From Chloroflexota bacterium (GTDB lineage Bacteria; Chloroflexota; Dehalococcoidia; Tepidiformales; Tepidiformaceae), in the NCBI GenBank assembly GCA_016234445.1, contig JACRBT010000004.1, forward strand, positions 372,001 through 436,000: DNA of 64,000 nt, given 5' to 3'. The notes beneath the pieces are model-generated. The model made no database searches. It saw only the letters and a program-made list of their open reading frames with translations, and was not told the origin of the DNA. Position numbers and translations under genes: made by a program. The number at the start of each line of letters is the position of its first letter. The stretch's first letter is position 1. Below, in pieces: positions 8,141 through 58,556 of the stretch.

Positions 8141-9978
8141 GCAACCCCAACCCGAAGCCCGTCCTTCGCATCGCCAACTGCTCCGGGTTCTATGGCGACC
8201 GCATCTCCGCCGCCCGGGAAATGGTCGAAGGCGGCCCCATCGACTTCCTCACCGGCGACTACCTGGCCGAACTCACCCTCCTCATCCTCTGGAAGGGGAA
8301 GCAGCGCGACCCCAGCGCCGGTTACGCGAACACCTACCTCCGCCAGATGGAGGAGGTCCTCGGGACCTGCCTCGAAAAAGGCATCAAGATCGTCACCAAC
8401 GCGGGCGGGCTCAACCCGGCATCCCTCGCGGCGAAGATGCGCGAACTTGCCGACCGCCTCGGCTTGCAGGCCCGGATTGCCCACATCGAAGGCGACGACA
8501 TCCTCGCGAAACTGCCCGAACTCCAGGCCGCCGGGAACCCGCTTGCCCACCTCGACACCGGCAAGCCGTTCGCATCGGTAGGCGCGGAAGCGGTGGCGGC
8601 GAACGCCTACCTCGGCGGCTGGGGCATCGTCCAGGCGCTGGACACCGGCGCCGACGTCGTCATCTGCCCGCGCGTGACCGATGCCTCCGTGGTCGTCGGG
8701 CCCGCGGCGTGGAACTTCGGCTGGAAGCGCGACGACTGGGACCGTCTGGCGGGCGCGGTCGTCGCCGGCCACATCATCGAATGCGGCGCCCAGGCCACCG
8801 GCGGCAACTACGCCTTCTTCCAGGAGGTCCCCGACCTTCACCACCCGGGCTTCCCCATCGCCGAAATGCACGACGACGGCAGCTTCGTCATCACCAAGCA
8901 CGAAGGCACGGGCGGCCTCGTCAGCACCGGCACCGTCACCGCCCAGCTGCTCTACGAGATCGGCAGCGAACGCTACCTCAACCCGGACGTCGTCTCCCGC
9001 TTCGACACCATCCGCCTCGAGGACGAAGCGCCGGACCGCGTGCGCGGGTTCGGCATTCGCGGCGAACCGGCCCCGGACACGACGAAGGTCTGCATCAACT
9101 ACATCGGCGGCTTCCGCAACTCGATGACCTTCGTCCTCACCGGCCTCGACATCGAAGAGAAGGCCCGGCTCGCCGAAGAGACGCTCTTCGCGGCCCTCGG
9201 CGGCAAGGAGCGCTTCGACAGCGTTACCGTCACCCTCACCCGCTCCGACCGGCAGGACCCCGGCTCGAACGAAGAGGCGAGCGCGTTCCTTCGGGTCACC
9301 GTCAAGGACCGCGACCCCCGCAAGACCGGCCGTCCGTTCTCAAACGCCGTCGTGGAGATGGCGCTCGCCAACTACCCGGGCTTCCACATGACCTCCGGGC
9401 CCGGCGGCGAAGACGCCTACGGGGTCTACTGGCCCGCCCTCGTCCCCGTCTCTGCGATCGACGAGGTCGTCGTCGACGCCGAGGGCCACGTGGCACCGGT
9501 TCCGCACACCGCCGCGGCGCCGCTCCAGGCGAACGTCGAGCCATGGCTGCCCGAACTCCCGCCGCCGCCCGGAGGACCCACCGTCCGGGCTCCCCTGGGG
9601 ACGGTCATCGGAGCACGCTCCGGCGACAAGGGCGGGAACGCCAACGTCGGCCTCTGGGCACGGAGCGATGCTGGCTACGCCTGGCTCGCCAGCTACCTGA
9701 CCACCGCGCGCTTCAAGGAACTGGTCGCGGAGGCCCGGAACCTGGAGGTGCGCCGCTACGAGTTCCCCAACCTGCGGGCGGTCAACTTCGTCGTCGTCGG
9801 CTTGCTGGGCGAAGGCGTCGCGTCGTCCACCCGCGCAGACCCGCAGGCGAAGAGCTTCGGCGAGTACGTCCGCGCGAAGCTGGTGGACCTCCCGGAAGCG
9901 CTGCTAGCGGACCGCCCATCGCGCCGGCGCCAGCCAGACCCCGTCGCCGCCGAACTCCACCGCGCCTTCCCACTCTAG
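8137..9978 (+). CDS. AtuA-family (acyclic terpene utilisation / DUF1446) protein
   Basis: 613 residues. The large N-terminal domain (about residues 8-460) starts RIANCSGFYGDRISAAREM, continues GPIDFLTGDYLAELTLLIL and IKIVTNAGGLNPASLAAKM, and matches the DUF1446/AtuA family. The C-terminal ferredoxin-like AtuA domain (about 490-600) has RSGDKGGNANVGLWARSD. AtuA is required for citronellol/geraniol breakdown in pseudomonads but its reaction is unproven. Its genomic partners there are geranyl-CoA carboxylase and a hydratase, the same combination as here. This is the last gene of the five-gene operon. Whether the substrate is an isoprenoid, leucine-derived CoA or something else is open. Confidence 0.85.
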   Translation: MSNPNPKPVLRIANCSGFYGDRISAAREMVEGGPIDFLTGDYLAELTLLILWKGKQRDPSAGYANTYLRQMEEVLGTCLEKGIKIVTNAGGLNPASLAAKMRELADRLGLQARIAHIEGDDILAKLPELQAAGNPLAHLDTGKPFASVGAEAVAANAYLGGWGIVQALDTGADVVICPRVTDASVVVGPAAWNFGWKRDDWDRLAGAVVAGHIIECGAQATGGNYAFFQEVPDLHHPGFPIAEMHDDGSFVITKHEGTGGLVSTGTVTAQLLYEIGSERYLNPDVVSRFDTIRLEDEAPDRVRGFGIRGEPAPDTTKVCINYIGGFRNSMTFVLTGLDIEEKARLAEETLFAALGGKERFDSVTVTLTRSDRQDPGSNEEASAFLRVTVKDRDPRKTGRPFSNAVVEMALANYPGFHMTSGPGGEDAYGVYWPALVPVSAIDEVVVDAEGHVAPVPHTAAAPLQANVEPWLPELPPPPGGPTVRAPLGTVIGARSGDKGGNANVGLWARSDAGYAWLASYLTTARFKELVAEARNLEVRRYEFPNLRAVNFVVVGLLGEGVASSTRADPQAKSFGEYVRAKLVDLPEALLADRPSRRRQPDPVAAELHRAFPL

Positions 9979-36135: not shown

Positions 36136-37185
36136 ATGACTCTCCCGTTCGGGCCACCGATCGAGCCCATGCTGGCGAAGCCGACGCCCGAGATCCCGGA
36201 CGGTCCCGGCTGGCTCTACGAACCGAAATGGGACGGGTTCCGGGCGCTCGTCTTCTTCGACGGCGGCGACCCCTACCTCCAGAGCCGCGACCTGAAGCCC
36301 CTCGGCCGCTACTTCCCGGAGGTGGTCGCGGGACTGGCGGGGGCGCTCCCTTGCCCGATGGTGCTGGACGGCGAACTCGTCATCATGGGGCCGAAGGGGC
36401 TCGACTTCGACGCCCTCCAGCTGCGCCTGCACCCGGCCGAATCGCGCGTCCGCAAGCTGGCAGCCGAGACCCCGGCCGCCTTCGTCGCCTTCGACATCCT
36501 CGCCGAAGGGAACACTGACCTGCGCGCCGCGCCCTTCAGTCAGCGTCGCGAACGGCTCACCGCGCTGCTGGGCGACGCCCGCCCGCCGGCCTTCGTCACG
36601 CCCGCGACTGGCGACCGGGCGCTCGCCCTCGACTGGTTCGACCGTTTCGAAGGCGCGGGCCTTGACGGGGTCATCGCCAAGCGGCTGGAGGCGCCGTACC
36701 AGCCCGGCGTCCGGGCGATGGCGAAGATCAAGCACCTCCGCACGGTGGACTGCGTCGTTGGGGGCTTCCGCTGGAACAAGGGCGAAACCGGTCGGTCGGT
36801 GGGCTCGCTCCTGCTCGGGCTGTACGACGACGCCGGGGTCTTCCACCACGTGGGCCACACGTCGAGCTTCAGCGCGGCGGAGAAGCGCGCACTCGTCGAG
36901 CGGCTCGCCCAATACGTGACCGGCGACGACGGCGACGGCTTCGGCCAGGGGAGGACGCCGGGAGCGCCGAGTCGCTGGAGCGCCGGGAAAGACCTCGCCT
37001 GGACCCGGCTGCGTCCCGAACTGGTCTGCGAAGTGACCTTTGACTACCTCCAGGGGCCGCGGTTCCGGCACGCCGCGACCTTCAAGCGCTGGCGGACGGA
37101 CAAGCCCCCGCAGGCCTGCAACTTCGACCAGCTGGCGGCGGTGGTGCCTTTCGAACTCGAGCAGGTCTTCCACGCGGCGAGGTAA
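36136..37185 (+). CDS. ATP-dependent DNA ligase (LigC/LigD-ligase type)
   Basis: 349 residues. The nucleotidyl-transfer motif EPKWDGFRAL places the AMP-accepting lysine at residue 31. VLDGELVIM (motif III), FVAFDILAEG, LDGVIAKRLEAPYQPG (motif IV) and MAKIKHLRTVDCVVGG (motif V) follow, then an OB-fold C-terminal domain. Length fits the stand-alone ligases that act with Ku and a LigD polymerase in end joining or in base excision repair. The LigD-type polymerase is 2.6 kb away at 39744. No Ku gene is in the window. TAGAGT eight bases before the ATG could be a -10 box for a nearly leaderless transcript. Confidence 0.9.
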   Translation: MTLPFGPPIEPMLAKPTPEIPDGPGWLYEPKWDGFRALVFFDGGDPYLQSRDLKPLGRYFPEVVAGLAGALPCPMVLDGELVIMGPKGLDFDALQLRLHPAESRVRKLAAETPAAFVAFDILAEGNTDLRAAPFSQRRERLTALLGDARPPAFVTPATGDRALALDWFDRFEGAGLDGVIAKRLEAPYQPGVRAMAKIKHLRTVDCVVGGFRWNKGETGRSVGSLLLGLYDDAGVFHHVGHTSSFSAAEKRALVERLAQYVTGDDGDGFGQGRTPGAPSRWSAGKDLAWTRLRPELVCEVTFDYLQGPRFRHAATFKRWRTDKPPQACNFDQLAAVVPFELEQVFHAAR

Positions 37186-37202
37186 CACCGGCCATCCGTG
37201 AG

Positions 37203-37230
37203 TTGACAGCCACCGGCGGGGCGCTATTCT
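37203..37230 (+). promoter_or_regulatory. Promoter of the RIO-kinase transcript
   Basis: TTGACA (37203-37208, consensus) and TATTCT (37225-37230) spaced by 16 bases, among the best sigma-70 matches in the window. The start would be near 37237, leaving a leader of about 220 bases before the kinase start at 37458. Confidence 0.7.
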
Positions 37231-37273
37231 GACCGCACACCAGGGGGCCTCACGCCCCGGGAGGAGCACGAGC

Positions 37274-37333
37274 ATGACCGCAGCAACTGTCGCCGTCCGT
37301 GCCCCGTCACGCCTCCCGGTGGACGCCTCCTAA
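37274..37333 (+). CDS. Candidate 19-residue leader peptide before the RIO kinase
   Basis: ATG at 37274 follows GGGAGGAG, the strongest ribosome-binding site in the area, and encodes MTAATVAVRAPSRLPVDAS before TAA. It lies directly downstream of a consensus promoter and upstream of alternative hairpins, the usual layout of translation-controlled attenuation. No matching leader family is known to me. Confidence 0.45.
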   Translation: MTAATVAVRAPSRLPVDAS

Positions 37334-37361
37334 CCCCTTCGCCAGCAGCGACGAGTGTTCA

Positions 37362-37397
37362 GGCCGCACCATGGGAGCGGCCGTTTCGTTTGCGGCC
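37362..37397 (+). other. Mutually exclusive hairpins in the RIO-kinase leader
   Basis: GGCCGC (37362-37367) can pair either with GCGGCC at 37377-37382, followed by GTTTCGTTT, or with GCGGCC at 37392-37397. The first option resembles a weak intrinsic terminator. It lies 28 bases after the 19-codon ORF. Confidence 0.4.
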
Positions 37398-37457
37398 CCG
37401 CGTGACGGACACCCCCGCGTCCTCATCGCCCGTCTGTCACACCGCAAGGGGTCCCCA

Positions 37458-38243
37458 ATGTCCGAATCGCCGCCCGGCACCGAGCCGGCGCCTTTCGCTT
37501 CCCGGAACAGTGACCTTTCCGACATGGAAGCCATCCAGGAGTTCATCGACGAAGCCGTCGTCACCGAGGTCCTCAACGTCGTCAAGAGCGGCAAGGAGGC
37601 GACGGTCTACCGCTGCCGGGCGCATCGCTCCGTCGGCCACAAGTTCGTCGCCGCGAAGGTCTACCACGACAGCGCCTTCCGAAACTTTGGCCGCGACAGC
37701 AGCTACACCGAGGGCCGGGTAATCCTGGTTGGACAGGTCAGGCGCGCGGTCGAGAAGAAGACCGACGTGGGCCGTAAGCTCGGTGCCAGCATCTGGGTGA
37801 ACCACGAGTTCGAGGTGCTCAGCGAGTTGCACTACGCCGGGGCCGACGTCCCCGAGCCGTTCTTCTCGACCGACCGCGCCATCCTGATGGAATACGTCGG
37901 CGGCGCGGACGAAGGCGGGATCCAGTTGCAACACGCCAGGCTCGAACCAGACGAGGCCGGCCCGGCGCTGGAGCGGCTGCTCTGGAACATCGAGACCTTC
38001 CTCGACCACCACATCGTCCACGCCGACCTCTCGCCCTTCAACGTGCTCACCCTCGACGGAAAGCTGAAAGTTATCGACTTCCCGCAGGCGGTGGACCCGC
38101 GCCAGAACCGGGGGTGGCTGACGTTGCTCGAACGCGACTTGAGGAACATCTGCCGCCACTTCGACCGCTACGGGTTCTCCGAGGACTGGCAGCGCATCGC
38201 AGCGAACCTGGAGCGCCGCTACCGCCTGGGCGAACTGGGGTGA
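37458..38243 (+). CDS. RIO1-family atypical serine/threonine kinase
   Basis: 261 residues. Nucleotide-binding part EVLNVVKSGKEATVYRC with the lysine of FVAAKVYH, catalytic loop HIVHADLSPFNVL (Asp in HAD) and metal-binding DFPQ segment KVIDFPQAVD. RIO kinases mature ribosomes in archaea and eukaryotes; bacterial members are uncharacterised. The start ATG at 37458 has AAGGGG seven bases before it. An in-frame ATG at 37371 would extend it by 29 residues through the leader hairpin and lacks a site. The long leader implies regulated expression. It stands between the NHEJ-type ligase and polymerase genes. Confidence 0.85.
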   Translation: MSESPPGTEPAPFASRNSDLSDMEAIQEFIDEAVVTEVLNVVKSGKEATVYRCRAHRSVGHKFVAAKVYHDSAFRNFGRDSSYTEGRVILVGQVRRAVEKKTDVGRKLGASIWVNHEFEVLSELHYAGADVPEPFFSTDRAILMEYVGGADEGGIQLQHARLEPDEAGPALERLLWNIETFLDHHIVHADLSPFNVLTLDGKLKVIDFPQAVDPRQNRGWLTLLERDLRNICRHFDRYGFSEDWQRIAANLERRYRLGELG

Positions 38244-38309
38244 CGGGTCACGGAGTCCTCCGCCGCTTGCCGGGCTCTCCTGGTGGCCGGCCGGCGCTTG
38301 ACAGGCTCG

Positions 38310-38315
38310 TACAAT
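38310..38315 (+). promoter_or_regulatory. TACAAT box of a probable leaderless promoter (also at 39052)
   Basis: TACAAT (38310-38315) lies eight bases before the ATG at 38324, and the identical arrangement stands before the ATG at 39066. No ribosome-binding site is present. A -10 box at this distance predicts that the transcript starts at or next to the AUG. The consensus TTGACA just upstream (38298-38303) is only six bases from it, too close to be its -35 box. Confidence 0.5.
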
Positions 38316-38323
38316 GGGCTCGG

Positions 38324-38983
38324 ATGTTCTTCCGAGTTGTCAGCAACCGCGTGTGTGGCGCCCTGGCCGTTTGTAGCGTCCTTGCCGCGATGGTGGTGGG
38401 CGCGCTGGCCATCCAGTCCACTGCCAGTGCACAGATGGGCCAGGGGAACTGCGTCGGCATGCCTCCGCTCGACCGGATGGAGACGCGGACCGATGTGCCT
38501 GGAGTCAAACTCGGCCCCATAGAGTCAGGGCCGTCTACTTCCTCGCCCGGGCGTGTGGAGCTTCGGCTGCGGTGGCCGTCTATTGCTCAGAGCCCGTCCA
38601 TTGTGAGCGCCAGTACGGCCTGTATCGCTGTCTGGAAGAAGATTCCCGGTGGCGATTGGTGGTCTCAAACCGAGCGCATCCTCCCAGCGGGCGCAACGGA
38701 ATTCATTGACAGCTCGCTTGGAAGCGCAGGTGAGTATTGCTACCGCTTCATGGCCATCGCCGATACCGCTCGAAGCGAGGTCAGCGAGAGCTGCTTCACG
38801 CTGAAGCAGGATCAGGCACCTCCGCCGCCCGGTTCGGCCCTTACGCCCGCTGCTCCAGCTGCCGGTCAGGGGTTCGCTGGCACAACGCCATCTGGCCGCG
38901 AGTGGTCGTGGATAGCCGGGGTGGCGCTGCTCATTGCCGCGGTTGCCCTCCCGGTCGCGTGGGGCCAACGGCATCGCCGGTAA
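38324..38983 (+). CDS. Secreted, C-terminally anchored FnIII-like protein, copy 1
   Basis: 219 residues. Signal peptide VCGALAVCSVLAAMVVGALA ending ASAQ; a mature domain with Cys pairs (NCVGMP, STACIAVWKK, YCYRF, ESCF) and the strand pattern WWSQTERILPAGATEFIDSS, resembling a fibronectin type III sandwich; a Pro/Ala linker; and the anchor helix WIAGVALLIAAVALPVAWGQ ending RHRR. No LPxTG-like signal, so probably held by the membrane helix. Function unknown. It is the first of two tandem copies and appears to be translated from a leaderless message. Confidence 0.7.
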   Translation: MFFRVVSNRVCGALAVCSVLAAMVVGALAIQSTASAQMGQGNCVGMPPLDRMETRTDVPGVKLGPIESGPSTSSPGRVELRLRWPSIAQSPSIVSASTACIAVWKKIPGGDWWSQTERILPAGATEFIDSSLGSAGEYCYRFMAIADTARSEVSESCFTLKQDQAPPPPGSALTPAAPAAGQGFAGTTPSGREWSWIAGVALLIAAVALPVAWGQRHRR

Positions 38984-38989
38984 GGCGCC

Positions 38990-39018
38990 TCAGCTGGGCT
39001 TGCGGCGCTTGCTGGGCT
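38990..39018 (-). pseudogene. Copied 3' end of the ligD polymerase gene
   Basis: On the minus strand this stretch encodes PSKRRKPS followed by a stop, against PSKRRKTS and stop at the true end of the polymerase gene (39744-39772). Around it 33 of 34 bases are identical (38986-39019 versus 39740-39773). It is a by-product of the tandem duplication of the neighbouring surface gene. Confidence 0.85.
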
Positions 39019-39065
39019 CTCCTCATGACCGGCCAGCGCTTGACAGGCTCGTACAATGGGCTCGG

Positions 39066-39737
39066 ATGTCGTTCCGAGATGTAGCCAACCGCCTACATGG
39101 CGCCCTGGCCGTTTGTAGCGTCCTTGCCGCGATGGTGGTGGGCGCGCTGGCCATCCCGTCCCCTGCCAGTGCGCAGATGGGCCAGGGGAACTGCGTCGGC
39201 CAGCCCCCGTTAGCAGCGCTTGAGGCCCGCGCTGATGTGCCCGCCGTCAGGGTCGCCCCCGTAGAGTTGGGCAAGGTCGCCGCCAAAGAGCTACCGGAGT
39301 TCGCATCCTTCGGCGGGCAGCTCGTGGTGCTTCGCCTGCAATGGCCGTCCATCACGGCGAGCCCGGCCATCGCGGGCGCCCGTACCGCGTGCATCGTTGT
39401 CTGGAAGAAGACCCCTGGGGGCGATTGGTGGTCGTTTGTCCACCGCATCCTCCCGGCTGGCACACAGGAGATCAGCGACGTCCCGTTTGGTGAAGCGGGT
39501 GAGTACTGCTATCGCTTCATGGTCATCGCCGACGATGCTCGCAGCGAGGTTAGTGAAAGCTGCTTCAACGTGGACCAGGCCCAGGGGCCTCCTTCGCTCG
39601 ATTCCGGCCCTGAGCTACTCGCCCGTCCGAATGCCGGTCAGAGCTTCAGCTACGAGTGGTCCTGGATTGCCGGGGTGGCGCTGCTCATCGCCGCGGTTGC
39701 CCTCCCGGTGGGGTGGAGCCAACGGCATCGCCGGTAA
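39066..39737 (+). CDS. Secreted, C-terminally anchored FnIII-like protein, copy 2
   Basis: 223 residues. Paralogue of the gene at 38324: same signal peptide core (ALAVCSVLAAMVVGALAIPS), the same cysteines (NCVGQP, RTACIVVWKK, YCYRF, ESCF) and near-identical anchor (WIAGVALLIAAVALPVGWSQ, RHRR). The middle differs by substitutions and small insertions (VELGKVAAKELPEF), so the two copies have diverged mainly in the exposed part. Identical TACAAT box eight bases before the ATG. Its stop is six bases from the stop of ligD on the other strand. Confidence 0.7.
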   Translation: MSFRDVANRLHGALAVCSVLAAMVVGALAIPSPASAQMGQGNCVGQPPLAALEARADVPAVRVAPVELGKVAAKELPEFASFGGQLVVLRLQWPSITASPAIAGARTACIVVWKKTPGGDWWSFVHRILPAGTQEISDVPFGEAGEYCYRFMVIADDARSEVSESCFNVDQAQGPPSLDSGPELLARPNAGQSFSYEWSWIAGVALLIAAVALPVGWSQRHRR

Positions 39738-39743
39738 GACGCC

Positions 39744-40751
39744 TCAGCTGGTCTTGCGGCGCTTGCTGGGCTGCACCCGGGGAGGTTCGCCGGCCTCCTT
39801 GGGGTAGTGCGGCGGCAGCGGCGCTTCGCCCTGGCCCTCCCGTTCGTGGCGCGCGACGAGCTCAAGCAACGGTTCGAGCGAGTGGGCGACGTCGTCGATC
39901 GTCGCGTGGGGGTCGCCGCGTTCGCGAAACAGGCCGGGGACCGTCGCCAGGGTGAAGCCGGCCGGCTCCACGTCCGGGACTTCGGCCCACTCCAGCGGCA
40001 TCGAAACGCGTGCGTCGGGCCGGGCGCGGACAGAGTAGGCCGAGGCGACGGTGCGGTCGCGGGCGTTCTGGTTGTAGTCGATGAAGACGCCGTGGCGCTC
40101 TTCCTTCCACCACGCGGTCGTGGCGAGGGCCGGCGCGCGGCGTTCGACTTCGCGGCCGATCGCCAGCGCGGAGCGGCGCACGTCCTGGAAGTCCCACTTC
40201 GGCTGGATGCGGACGTTGATGTGGATCCCGCGCGAGCCCGACGTCTTCGGGTAGCCGCGGTAGCCGAGCCCGTCGAGCACCTCGCCGGCAACCATCGCCA
40301 CCGCGCGGACGTCCGCGAAGGTCGCCTCCGGGGTCGGGTCGAGGTCGATCCGGAGCTCGTCGGGATGGTCGACGTCGCTCGCGCGCACGGGCCAGGGGTT
40401 GAGGTCGACGCAGCCGAGGTTCACCACCCAGGCGAGGTCGGCTTCGTCTTCGCAGACAACCTCGTCGGCGCTCCGCCCGCTGGGGAAGTGGATCCGGGCG
40501 GTCTTGATCCATTCGGGGCGCTGTTCGGGCGCGCGTTTCTGGAAGAAGGGCTCGGCGTCGACCCCGTTCACATAGCGCTTCAGGATCATCGGGCGGCCGC
40601 GGATGCCCCGGAGGGCGCCGTCAGCCACGGCCAGGTAGTAGTTCACGAGGTCGAGCTTTGTGTAGCCCGGCCCCGGGAAGTAGACCTTCGCCGGGTTGGT
40701 GATGGTCACCGTCTTTCCGGCAAGGTCGAGCGTCACCGGCGCGGCAGGCAT
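39744..40751 (-). CDS. ligD: LigD-type DNA polymerase/primase (PrimPol) domain protein
   Basis: 335 residues, the stand-alone polymerase domain of LigD. Motifs: TKLDLVNYYLAVADGALRGI, PMILKRYVNGVDAEPFFQKR, the metal-binding DELRIDLDPTP, KTSGSRGIHINVRI (SGxxGxH) and HGVFIDYNQNARDRTVASAY. It fills gaps with ribonucleotides or deoxynucleotides at broken ends. In many bacteria polymerase and ligase are fused; here the ligase is a separate gene at 36136 and no nuclease domain is present. It starts six bases downstream of the F420 oxidoreductase gene on the same strand, so the two may share a transcript. Confidence 0.9.
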   Translation of the reverse strand: MPAAPVTLDLAGKTVTITNPAKVYFPGPGYTKLDLVNYYLAVADGALRGIRGRPMILKRYVNGVDAEPFFQKRAPEQRPEWIKTARIHFPSGRSADEVVCEDEADLAWVVNLGCVDLNPWPVRASDVDHPDELRIDLDPTPEATFADVRAVAMVAGEVLDGLGYRGYPKTSGSRGIHINVRIQPKWDFQDVRRSALAIGREVERRAPALATTAWWKEERHGVFIDYNQNARDRTVASAYSVRARPDARVSMPLEWAEVPDVEPAGFTLATVPGLFRERGDPHATIDDVAHSLEPLLELVARHEREGQGEAPLPPHYPKEAGEPPRVQPSKRRKTS

Positions 40752-58368: not shown

Positions 58369-58556
58369 GGGAACCTCCGGGAGTGATTGTGCCCACCGGA
58401 AGGTTGCCCTCCGCGGATGGACGCAGGCACGTCCTGGCCCAGGCGAGCGGCCACGAGTTGAGTTGCTGGTCCCGGGCTTCCCCGCGGTGCTCCGCGTTTC
58501 GCCAGTCGCCCGGACGGCCCTAGTGTATCAGGAACGGGGGCGCCGGGGCGGCGAAA

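What the first reader, a model, noticed from the sequence alone, without database searches (positions are those of the whole stretch)
37203..37460. Long leader with a 19-codon ORF and alternative hairpins before a RIO-type kinase
Seen: consensus TTGACA-N16-TATTCT promoter, GGGAGGAG, a 19-codon ORF and then GGCCGC able to pair with either of two GCGGCC sites, the nearer followed by GTTTCGTTT. Known: this plan is used in attenuation by leader peptides. Inference: the kinase may be induced by a translation signal, for instance ribosome stalling, which would link it to ribosome state as in archaeal RIO proteins.
Basis: partly seen in the sequence, partly recalled or inferred. Interest (0 to 1): 0.5.

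Follow-up and report, generated by a model that had tools for sequence, protein, structure and literature searches.

The report
Stall-sensing leader before RIO kinase
A short upstream reading frame and a built-in stop signal in front of a RIO-type kinase gene form a switch found in many bacteria of one phylum, which by its design should turn the gene on when ribosomes jam at the start of translation.

Summary
The window carries a consensus promoter, a strong ribosome-binding site, a 19-codon ORF and a GC hairpin before a RIO1-type kinase. It is not chance. The same order (SD, 10-30 codon ORF, hairpin with T tail) lies upstream of 63 of 110 Chloroflexota RIO-kinase places. Under strict rules it is found at 46 of 110, against 0.2 expected from shuffles. 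Of 366 genes in 464 kb of this genome, only this kinase has it. Comparison of 86 leaders reveals a three-helix switch: an element inside the ORF pairs either with the ORF's own Shine-Dalgarno or with the terminator hairpin. Both pairings coevolve (swap-test z -7.7 and -6.2; six control pairings -3.5 to +2.9). Folding predicts read-through mainly when a ribosome sits on codons 1-3; shuffled elements lose this. In one related family the same leader type precedes ABC exporters. Best reading: a ribosome-mediated transcription attenuator sensing ribosomes held at or near start codons, as in vmlR; a new variant with a new target. Inducer and kinase substrate are unknown.

The parts
37203..37230 (+). 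promoter: TTGACA, 16 nt, TATTCT
   Evidence: 10 of 12 matches; shuffles mean 0.0; similar TTGAC boxes seen by eye upstream of many relatives' ORFs, not counted
37243..37258 (+). short GC stem just 5' of the ribosome-binding site (GGGGGC...GCCCC)
   Evidence: sequence; similar stems seen by eye in relatives; not counted
37259..37266 (+). element 1: Shine-Dalgarno GGGAGGAG of the leader ORF, also the 5' arm of the proposed anti-antiterminator
   Evidence: 1:2 duplex energies, shuffles and swap tests; the minimum-energy fold of the leader pairs it with the ORF interior
37274..37333 (+). leader ORF, 19 codons, MTAATVAVRAPSRLPVDAS
   Evidence: conserved position and length (12-28 codons) in 86 leaders
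37310..37321 (+). element 2 inside the ORF (CGCCTCCCGGTG), complementary to element 1 and to the terminator hairpin
   Evidence: relatives carry CGCGCCTCC / GCGCGCCTCCT / CACGTCTCC here
37362..37382 (+). terminator hairpin (elements 3 and 4), GGCCGCACCATGGGAGCGGCC
   Evidence: relatives' counterparts e.g. GGCCGCCGCGAAGGCGGCC followed by TTTTCC
37383..37391 (+). T-rich tail GTTTCGTTT
37458..38243 (+). RIO1-type kinase, 261 aa, with intact GKEA, HADLSPFN and IDFPQ motifs; own SD AAGGGG 37446-37451

Best explanation
The 37203-37460 stretch is the promoter and leader of a ribosome-mediated transcription attenuator of the RIO1-type kinase. SHOWN by comparison: a translatable ORF with a strong SD, followed by an intrinsic-terminator-like hairpin, conserved across Chloroflexota, and an element 2 in the ORF that coevolves with both the SD (element 1) and the hairpin (elements 3 and 4). 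INFERRED working: with no ribosome, 1:2 forms, the hairpin (3:4) forms and transcription stops. With a ribosome that moves through the ORF, element 2 is covered while the hairpin is made, and transcription stops. With a ribosome held at the start or first codons, element 1 is covered but 2 is free; 2 pairs with the hairpin sequence, termination fails and the kinase is made. The likely inducers are agents or states that hold ribosomes at start or early codons; the early residues are not conserved, so no particular amino acid is sensed.
For: Architecture: 63 of 110 kinase places loose within 700 nt; strict 46 of 110 vs 0.2 expected from dinucleotide shuffles; only this kinase among 366 control genes; 29 of 30 in another family. 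By group: own family 12 of 14, short paralogs of family f115 12 of 14, long paralogs of the same family 0 of 16. Pairing: 1:2 mean z -1.9 and 2:3 -1.2 vs shuffled element 2; swap test over 86 leaders z -7.7 and -6.2, six control segment pairs -3.5 to +2.9. In 29 aligned f104 leaders 1:2 is paired in 93.5%, 2:3 in 93.1% and 3:4 in 92.2% of cells, with compensatory changes. Ribosome position: mean terminator probability 0.83 without ribosome, 0.67 at codons 1-3, 0.87 at mid ORF; shuffled element 2: 0.85, 0.85, 0.87; for the window's leader 0.91, 0.58, 0.90. Frame: start-to-element distance 33-45 nt, a multiple of 3 in 29 of 29 f104 leaders.
Against: No expression data. Pairing evidence is uneven: in f115 the 1:2 helix is not supported (swap z +1.8) and in the window's own family the 2:3 swap test is not significant (z -0.8). 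In f104 the column shuffles for 2:3 are not decisive (32 to 183 of 500 reach the observed measures). Only 30 of 86 leaders lose the terminator to pairing with upstream sequence in the minimum-energy fold with a ribosome at the start, and for the window the answer depends on how much 5' sequence and tail is folded: 0.52 or 0.93. The window's terminator is weak by consensus. 47 of 110 kinase places lack the architecture under the scan. Relatedness can inflate swap tests, which is why the control segment pairs are reported.
Confidence: 0.72

Rival explanations
1. Arrest-peptide attenuator: the nascent peptide itself (for example the APP motif in family f104, RLR/RLP in the window's family) stalls the ribosome near codons 13-16.
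For: f104 peptides nearly all carry (A/V/T)P(P/L) near codons 12-16 and their frame is fixed in 29 of 29.
Against: In f115 the same nucleotide element is read in two different frames (4 vs 7 of 11), so there RNA, not peptide, is kept; all 86 peptides differ. A ribosome at codon 13 or later gives the highest mean terminator probability, i.e. OFF.
Confidence: 0.12
2. Amino-acid-specific attenuation as in trp or thr leaders.
For: Codons 2-10 are rich in T, V, S, A, I.
Against: No run of one amino acid at any conserved position; the kinase is not a biosynthetic enzyme.
Confidence: 0.05
3. The kinase starts upstream (in-frame ATG 37371 or GTG 37299) and the hairpins are merely GC-rich coding sequence.
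For: The kinase frame is open back to the leader ORF in the window.
Against: In several relatives the kinase frame is closed by a stop between hairpin and kinase (e.g. L044, L052, L053, L062), yet ORF and hairpin persist.
Confidence: 0.04
4. Constitutive weak terminator with a leader ORF that only tunes translation or mRNA stability (no switch).
For: No expression data; for the window the predicted switch is modest and depends on the folded stretch.
Against: Element 2 coevolves with both partners, and its shuffling removes the ribosome-position effect.
Confidence: 0.07

Closest known systems
B. subtilis vmlR leader (PMC9226507; abstract and passages seen)
   Same: uORF inside an anti-antiterminator; a ribosome stalled at its start lets an antiterminator form that prevents intrinsic termination; tolerant of uORF sequence
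   Different: vmlR uORF is three codons and its SD lies single-stranded before the hairpin; here the ORF is 12-28 codons and its own SD is the 5' arm of the anti-antiterminator; target is a RIO kinase; other phylum
B. subtilis bmrB-bmrCD attenuator (PMC4191407; abstract, outline and one results section seen)
   Same: leader ORF with alternative stem-loops controls transcription; target is a multidrug ABC exporter, as for the related leaders here; loss of translation lowers expression and abolishes induction
   Different: 53-residue leader with the terminator inside its coding region; here the terminator lies after the stop codon
E. coli toiL-topAI leader (PMC12121999; abstract, outline, one results section and part 1 of 2 of the Discussion seen)
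   Same: uORF that senses ribosomes stalled at its start codon (tetracycline, retapamulin)
   Different: acts by freeing the downstream ribosome-binding site with Rho-dependent termination, not by an intrinsic terminator

Membership tests
Ribosome-mediated transcription attenuator | translatable leader ORF with ribosome-binding site | tested here: met
   in-frame length changes in 29 of 29 f104 leaders
Ribosome-mediated transcription attenuator | intrinsic terminator between leader ORF and gene | tested here: met
   met in relatives; in the window itself the hairpin is present but weak by consensus
Ribosome-mediated transcription attenuator | mutually exclusive antiterminator pairing supported by coevolution | tested here: met
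   swap test z -6.2 over 86 leaders; not significant within the window's family alone (z -0.8)
Ribosome-mediated transcription attenuator | read-through depends on ribosome position in vivo | not testable with these tools
   only predicted
vmlR-type start-codon-stall attenuator | a ribosome at the start codon breaks the anti-antiterminator and prevents termination | tested here: inconclusive
   predicted on average and for the window with one choice of ends (0.52) but not another (0.93)
Amino-acid attenuator (trp/thr type) | run of regulatory codons for one amino acid | tested here: not met
Arrest-peptide leader | conserved peptide motif across members | tested here: not met
   element read in two frames in f115; motif conserved only within f104
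Rfam families | match to a known cis-regulatory RNA | tested here: not met
   0 matches at E<=5 in 37150-37520; 0 matches in 12 related loci at gathering score
RIO kinase (Pfam RIO1) | RIO domain and fold with catalytic motifs | tested here: met
   Pfam RIO1 107.9 bits over cut-off 22; invariant K67, H188, D190, N195, D207 in 16 sequences; best structural matches are RIO kinases
PA4780 family (NCBIfam NF041645) | curated score cut-off | tested here: not met
   147.9 bits, cut-off 350

The most novel reading that the evidence does not exclude
Chloroflexota own a widespread, undescribed class of attenuators in which the leader ORF's Shine-Dalgarno is itself one arm of the switch, so that the leader reads out ribosomes trapped at start codons. 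It drives a translation-inhibitor regulon of ABC exporters, GNAT genes and a RIO kinase, making a bacterial RIO kinase a ribosome- or antibiotic-stress enzyme.
Probability: 0.4. Interest if true: 0.82.

Novelty: new variant of a known kind. Interest (0 to 1): 0.68.

Why it matters
Bacterial RIO kinases have no assigned job in anything I read here, while RIO kinases of archaea and eukaryotes are known as ribosome-maturation factors (recalled; one search shows that the best structural matches lie on 40S and pre-40S particles). A conserved stall-sensing leader gives a testable cue to when the bacterial enzyme is needed, and puts it next to drug exporters. The leader is also a compact design in which one helix both limits uORF initiation and sets the terminator, and it extends attenuation of the vmlR kind to another phylum, much of it known only from uncultured genomes.

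Tried and rejected
Peptide-level stalling at RLR or APP as the main conserved feature: set aside because the element is read in two frames in f115. A model of the f104 leader (R1) found nothing in the window's genome, not even the kinase leader, so its silence there says nothing about other genes. In 843 kb of the window's genome a strict-type scan on both strands gave 17 leader-like places; apart from the kinase only one, before a biotin-ligase-like gene (two of its start codons counted), looked plausible to me. R1 hits before a leucyl-tRNA-synthetase-like gene (L218) and an ABC-F gene (L221) were dropped as leaders because no ORF/terminator pair was found there. Leaders in other phyla: three of the 10 plasmid-record RIO genes found (Deinococcus, Nonomuraea, Pseudoalteromonas) were looked at and gave no ORF/terminator pair. 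A model from the window's own family was not built because the 1:2 helix does not fall in fixed columns of its alignment (by eye).

Full report
WHAT IS THERE. The window has, in order, TTGACA-16-TATTCT (37203-37230), a short GC stem, GGGAGGAG (37259-37266), a 19-codon ORF (37274-37333), a hairpin GGCCGCACCATGGGAGCGGCC (37362-37382) with GTTTCGTTT behind it, and a kinase gene from ATG 37458 to 38243. The promoter is the only sigma-70-like one found in 37050-37650, with a shuffle mean of 0.0; the tool's terminator scan finds none there. The kinase matches Pfam RIO1 (107.9 bits, cut-off 22) and falls below the PA4780 cut-off (147.9 of 350). It keeps the catalytic residues in an alignment of 16. 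Its AlphaFold2 model (mean pLDDT 84.5) matches RIO kinases best: RIOK3 and RIO1 on 40S or pre-40S particles, then Archaeoglobus Rio1. The next gene upstream is an ATP-dependent ligase.

TAXON. A genome of the same family as the window's has a contig of the same length, with the match at the same place, as JABTUD010000001.1, titled Thermoflexaceae; NCBI files that name under Chloroflexota. The genomes are otherwise unnamed, and the family labels f1 (the window's own), f104 and f115 are the tool's. Calling f115 Ktedonobacteria-like in my notes was a guess.

CONSERVATION. Kinase relatives were found in 24 of 99 close genomes (E<=0.001), 25 of 393 of the class and 87 of 400 of the phylum (E<=1e-20). 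I examined 110 kinase places; one more, L129, was fetched wrongly and dropped. Searches fetched 60 stretches for phylum places without a locus; 13 weaker, partial or further places were not fetched. A scan for an SD-led ORF of 10-30 codons followed after 8-60 nt by a hairpin with T tail finds 63 of 110 within 700 nt. Within 500 nt the loose rule gives 56 of 110 against 1.8 expected from dinucleotide shuffles, and the strict rule 46 of 110 against 0.2. A first control over 318 genes gave 5 loose and 0 strict, missing the kinase itself because of its long open frame. With a wider stretch, of 366 ORF-called genes in 464 kb of the window's genome, 12 pass the loose rule and 1, this kinase, the strict rule. 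By group: own family 12 of 14 (the other two have the SD and a 19-codon ORF by eye, but no hairpin called); other families of the class 9 of 11; f115 short paralogs 12 of 14 (one miss has little upstream sequence, one an N run); f115 long paralogs 0 of 16; f104 11 of 13 and, in a fuller draw, 29 of 30; remaining places 19 of 42. The long paralogs, which sit in the same family as the short ones, are a useful internal control.

THE ELEMENT INSIDE THE ORF. Alignments show a conserved patch in the second half of the ORF: GCGCGCCTCCT in f104, CGCGCCTCC or close in most of the window's family, CACGTCTCC in f115. In f104 it mostly encodes APP and its distance from the start codon is 33-45 nt, a multiple of three in 29 of 29. 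In f115 the patch is read in frame 0 in 4 and frame 2 in 7 of 11, so the nucleotides are what is kept there. Of 86 leaders (picked from 133 places, script), 65 have CTCC, CCTC or CTTC at ORF nt 28-52, against 30.6 in mononucleotide shuffles. The patch is complementary to the ORF's own SD and to the terminator hairpin.

TESTS OF PAIRING. Against shuffled element 2, mean z is -1.9 for 1:2 and -1.2 for 2:3. In swap tests, which keep every segment and only exchange partners between species, 1:2 gives z -7.7 and 2:3 z -6.2 over 86. Six control segment pairs give +2.5, +0.7, +2.9, -2.6, -3.5 and +1.1. Within groups the results are uneven (1:2 then 2:3): 28 leaders of other families -6.6 and -4.0; f104 -2.3 and -3.2; own family -2.7 and -0.8; f115 +1.8 and -1.7. 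On the f104 alignment, standard pairs fill 93.5% (1:2), 93.1% (2:3) and 92.2% (3:4) of cells, with changes on both sides at 3, 3 and 1 pairs. Column shuffles reach the observed covariation score in 20, 103 and 31 of 500, so 2:3 is not decisive by that measure.

TEST OF LOGIC. Folding with a masked ribosome footprint gives mean terminator pairing of 0.83 with none, 0.67-0.68 at codons 1-3 and 0.86 to 0.89 from codon 6 on. With element 2 shuffled the early drop vanishes (0.005 against 0.161; largest of 20 control sets 0.029). For the window's leader the values are 0.91 without ribosome, 0.58 (mean of codons 1-3) and 0.90 at mid ORF. With a longer 3' end and another 5' end the value at the start codon is 0.93, so for this one sequence the prediction is soft. 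In minimum-energy folds 30 of 86 show replacement of the terminator with a ribosome at the start; 82 of 86 show the terminator with one at the stop.

OTHER GENES. A covariance model of the f104 leader (R1) gave 26 matches in 41 f104 genomes. Fourteen belong to RIO kinases: twelve directly upstream, one upstream of a second RIO gene (L213), and one where a GNAT gene stands between leader and kinase with its end overlapping the kinase ATG (L214). Of the other twelve, ten have an ORF and terminator by the scan. They precede three ABC ATPases closest to, but below the cut-off of, DrrA (L210, L215, L216) and five MsbA-like ABC exporters (L209, L211, L217, L219, L220; L211 assigned by its likeness to L209, the others). 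One precedes a GNAT gene some 300 nt away (L212), and one (L207) has no clear gene, with a TetR gene 700 nt on. Hits before a leucyl-tRNA-synthetase-like gene and an ABC-F gene were not confirmed. In the MsbA-like and L212 leaders the SD helix has another sequence (GGCGCACT with AGTGCGCC, by eye) but the same plan. This company suggests translation-inhibitor stress, in one family only; R1 does not see even the kinase leader in the window's genome.

COMPARISON. The logic is that of vmlR (anti-antiterminator, antiterminator, terminator; stalling at initiation) and of bmrB. Start-codon stalling by tetracycline and retapamulin as a trigger is documented for toiL. No Rfam family matches. Paper searches with terms on RIO kinases and bacteria, leader peptides, attenuation, uORF and Chloroflexi/Chloroflexota/Chloroflexus listed no paper that I recognised as describing this leader or such control of a RIO gene (listings only, open-licence papers only).

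VERDICT. A real, conserved leader; most likely a ribosome-mediated transcription attenuator that turns on when ribosomes are held at or near the start codon. It is a new variant of a known kind with an unexpected target.

Noticed in passing
window 36136-37185 and 39744-40751: The kinase lies between an ATP-dependent ligase gene and a LigD primase-polymerase gene (opposite strand); ligase-like C-termini end just upstream of the leader in several relatives of the same family.
   Followed up: partly
L150, minus strand, near 9290 of the reverse complement: A second leader-like place in the same genome: ORF MDYHSRSYGLTLALEVTSS and a strong hairpin with TCTTTTTG before a biotin-ligase-like gene.
   Followed up: no
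L209, L211, L217, L219, L220, L212: Leader ORFs before ABC exporters and a GNAT gene share a peptide ending close to PSRSAPVD whose codons for S-A-P are invariant (AGTGCGCCT), the part that pairs with the SD region.
   Followed up: partly
L171, L183, L191, L192, L195: A small palindrome ACGACTNNAGTCGT directly after the leader stop codon in several f104 leaders; perhaps a pause hairpin.
   Followed up: no
L061-L073, about 190-250 nt before the kinase match: Family f115 leaders carry a second hairpin with T tail and a recurring GCGTGATGC loop, so two terminators in tandem.
   Followed up: no
L242, about 150 nt upstream of 1072: Deinococcus radiophilus RIO gene also has AAAGGAGG and a short upstream ORF that contains CCTCCTT, without a called terminator.
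   Followed up: no
window 58430-58519 minus: ZMP/ZTP riboswitch (Rfam RF01750).
   Followed up: no
window 38283-39737: Two tandem, similar ORFs (repeated gene, secreted-looking N-termini) just downstream of the kinase.
   Followed up: no
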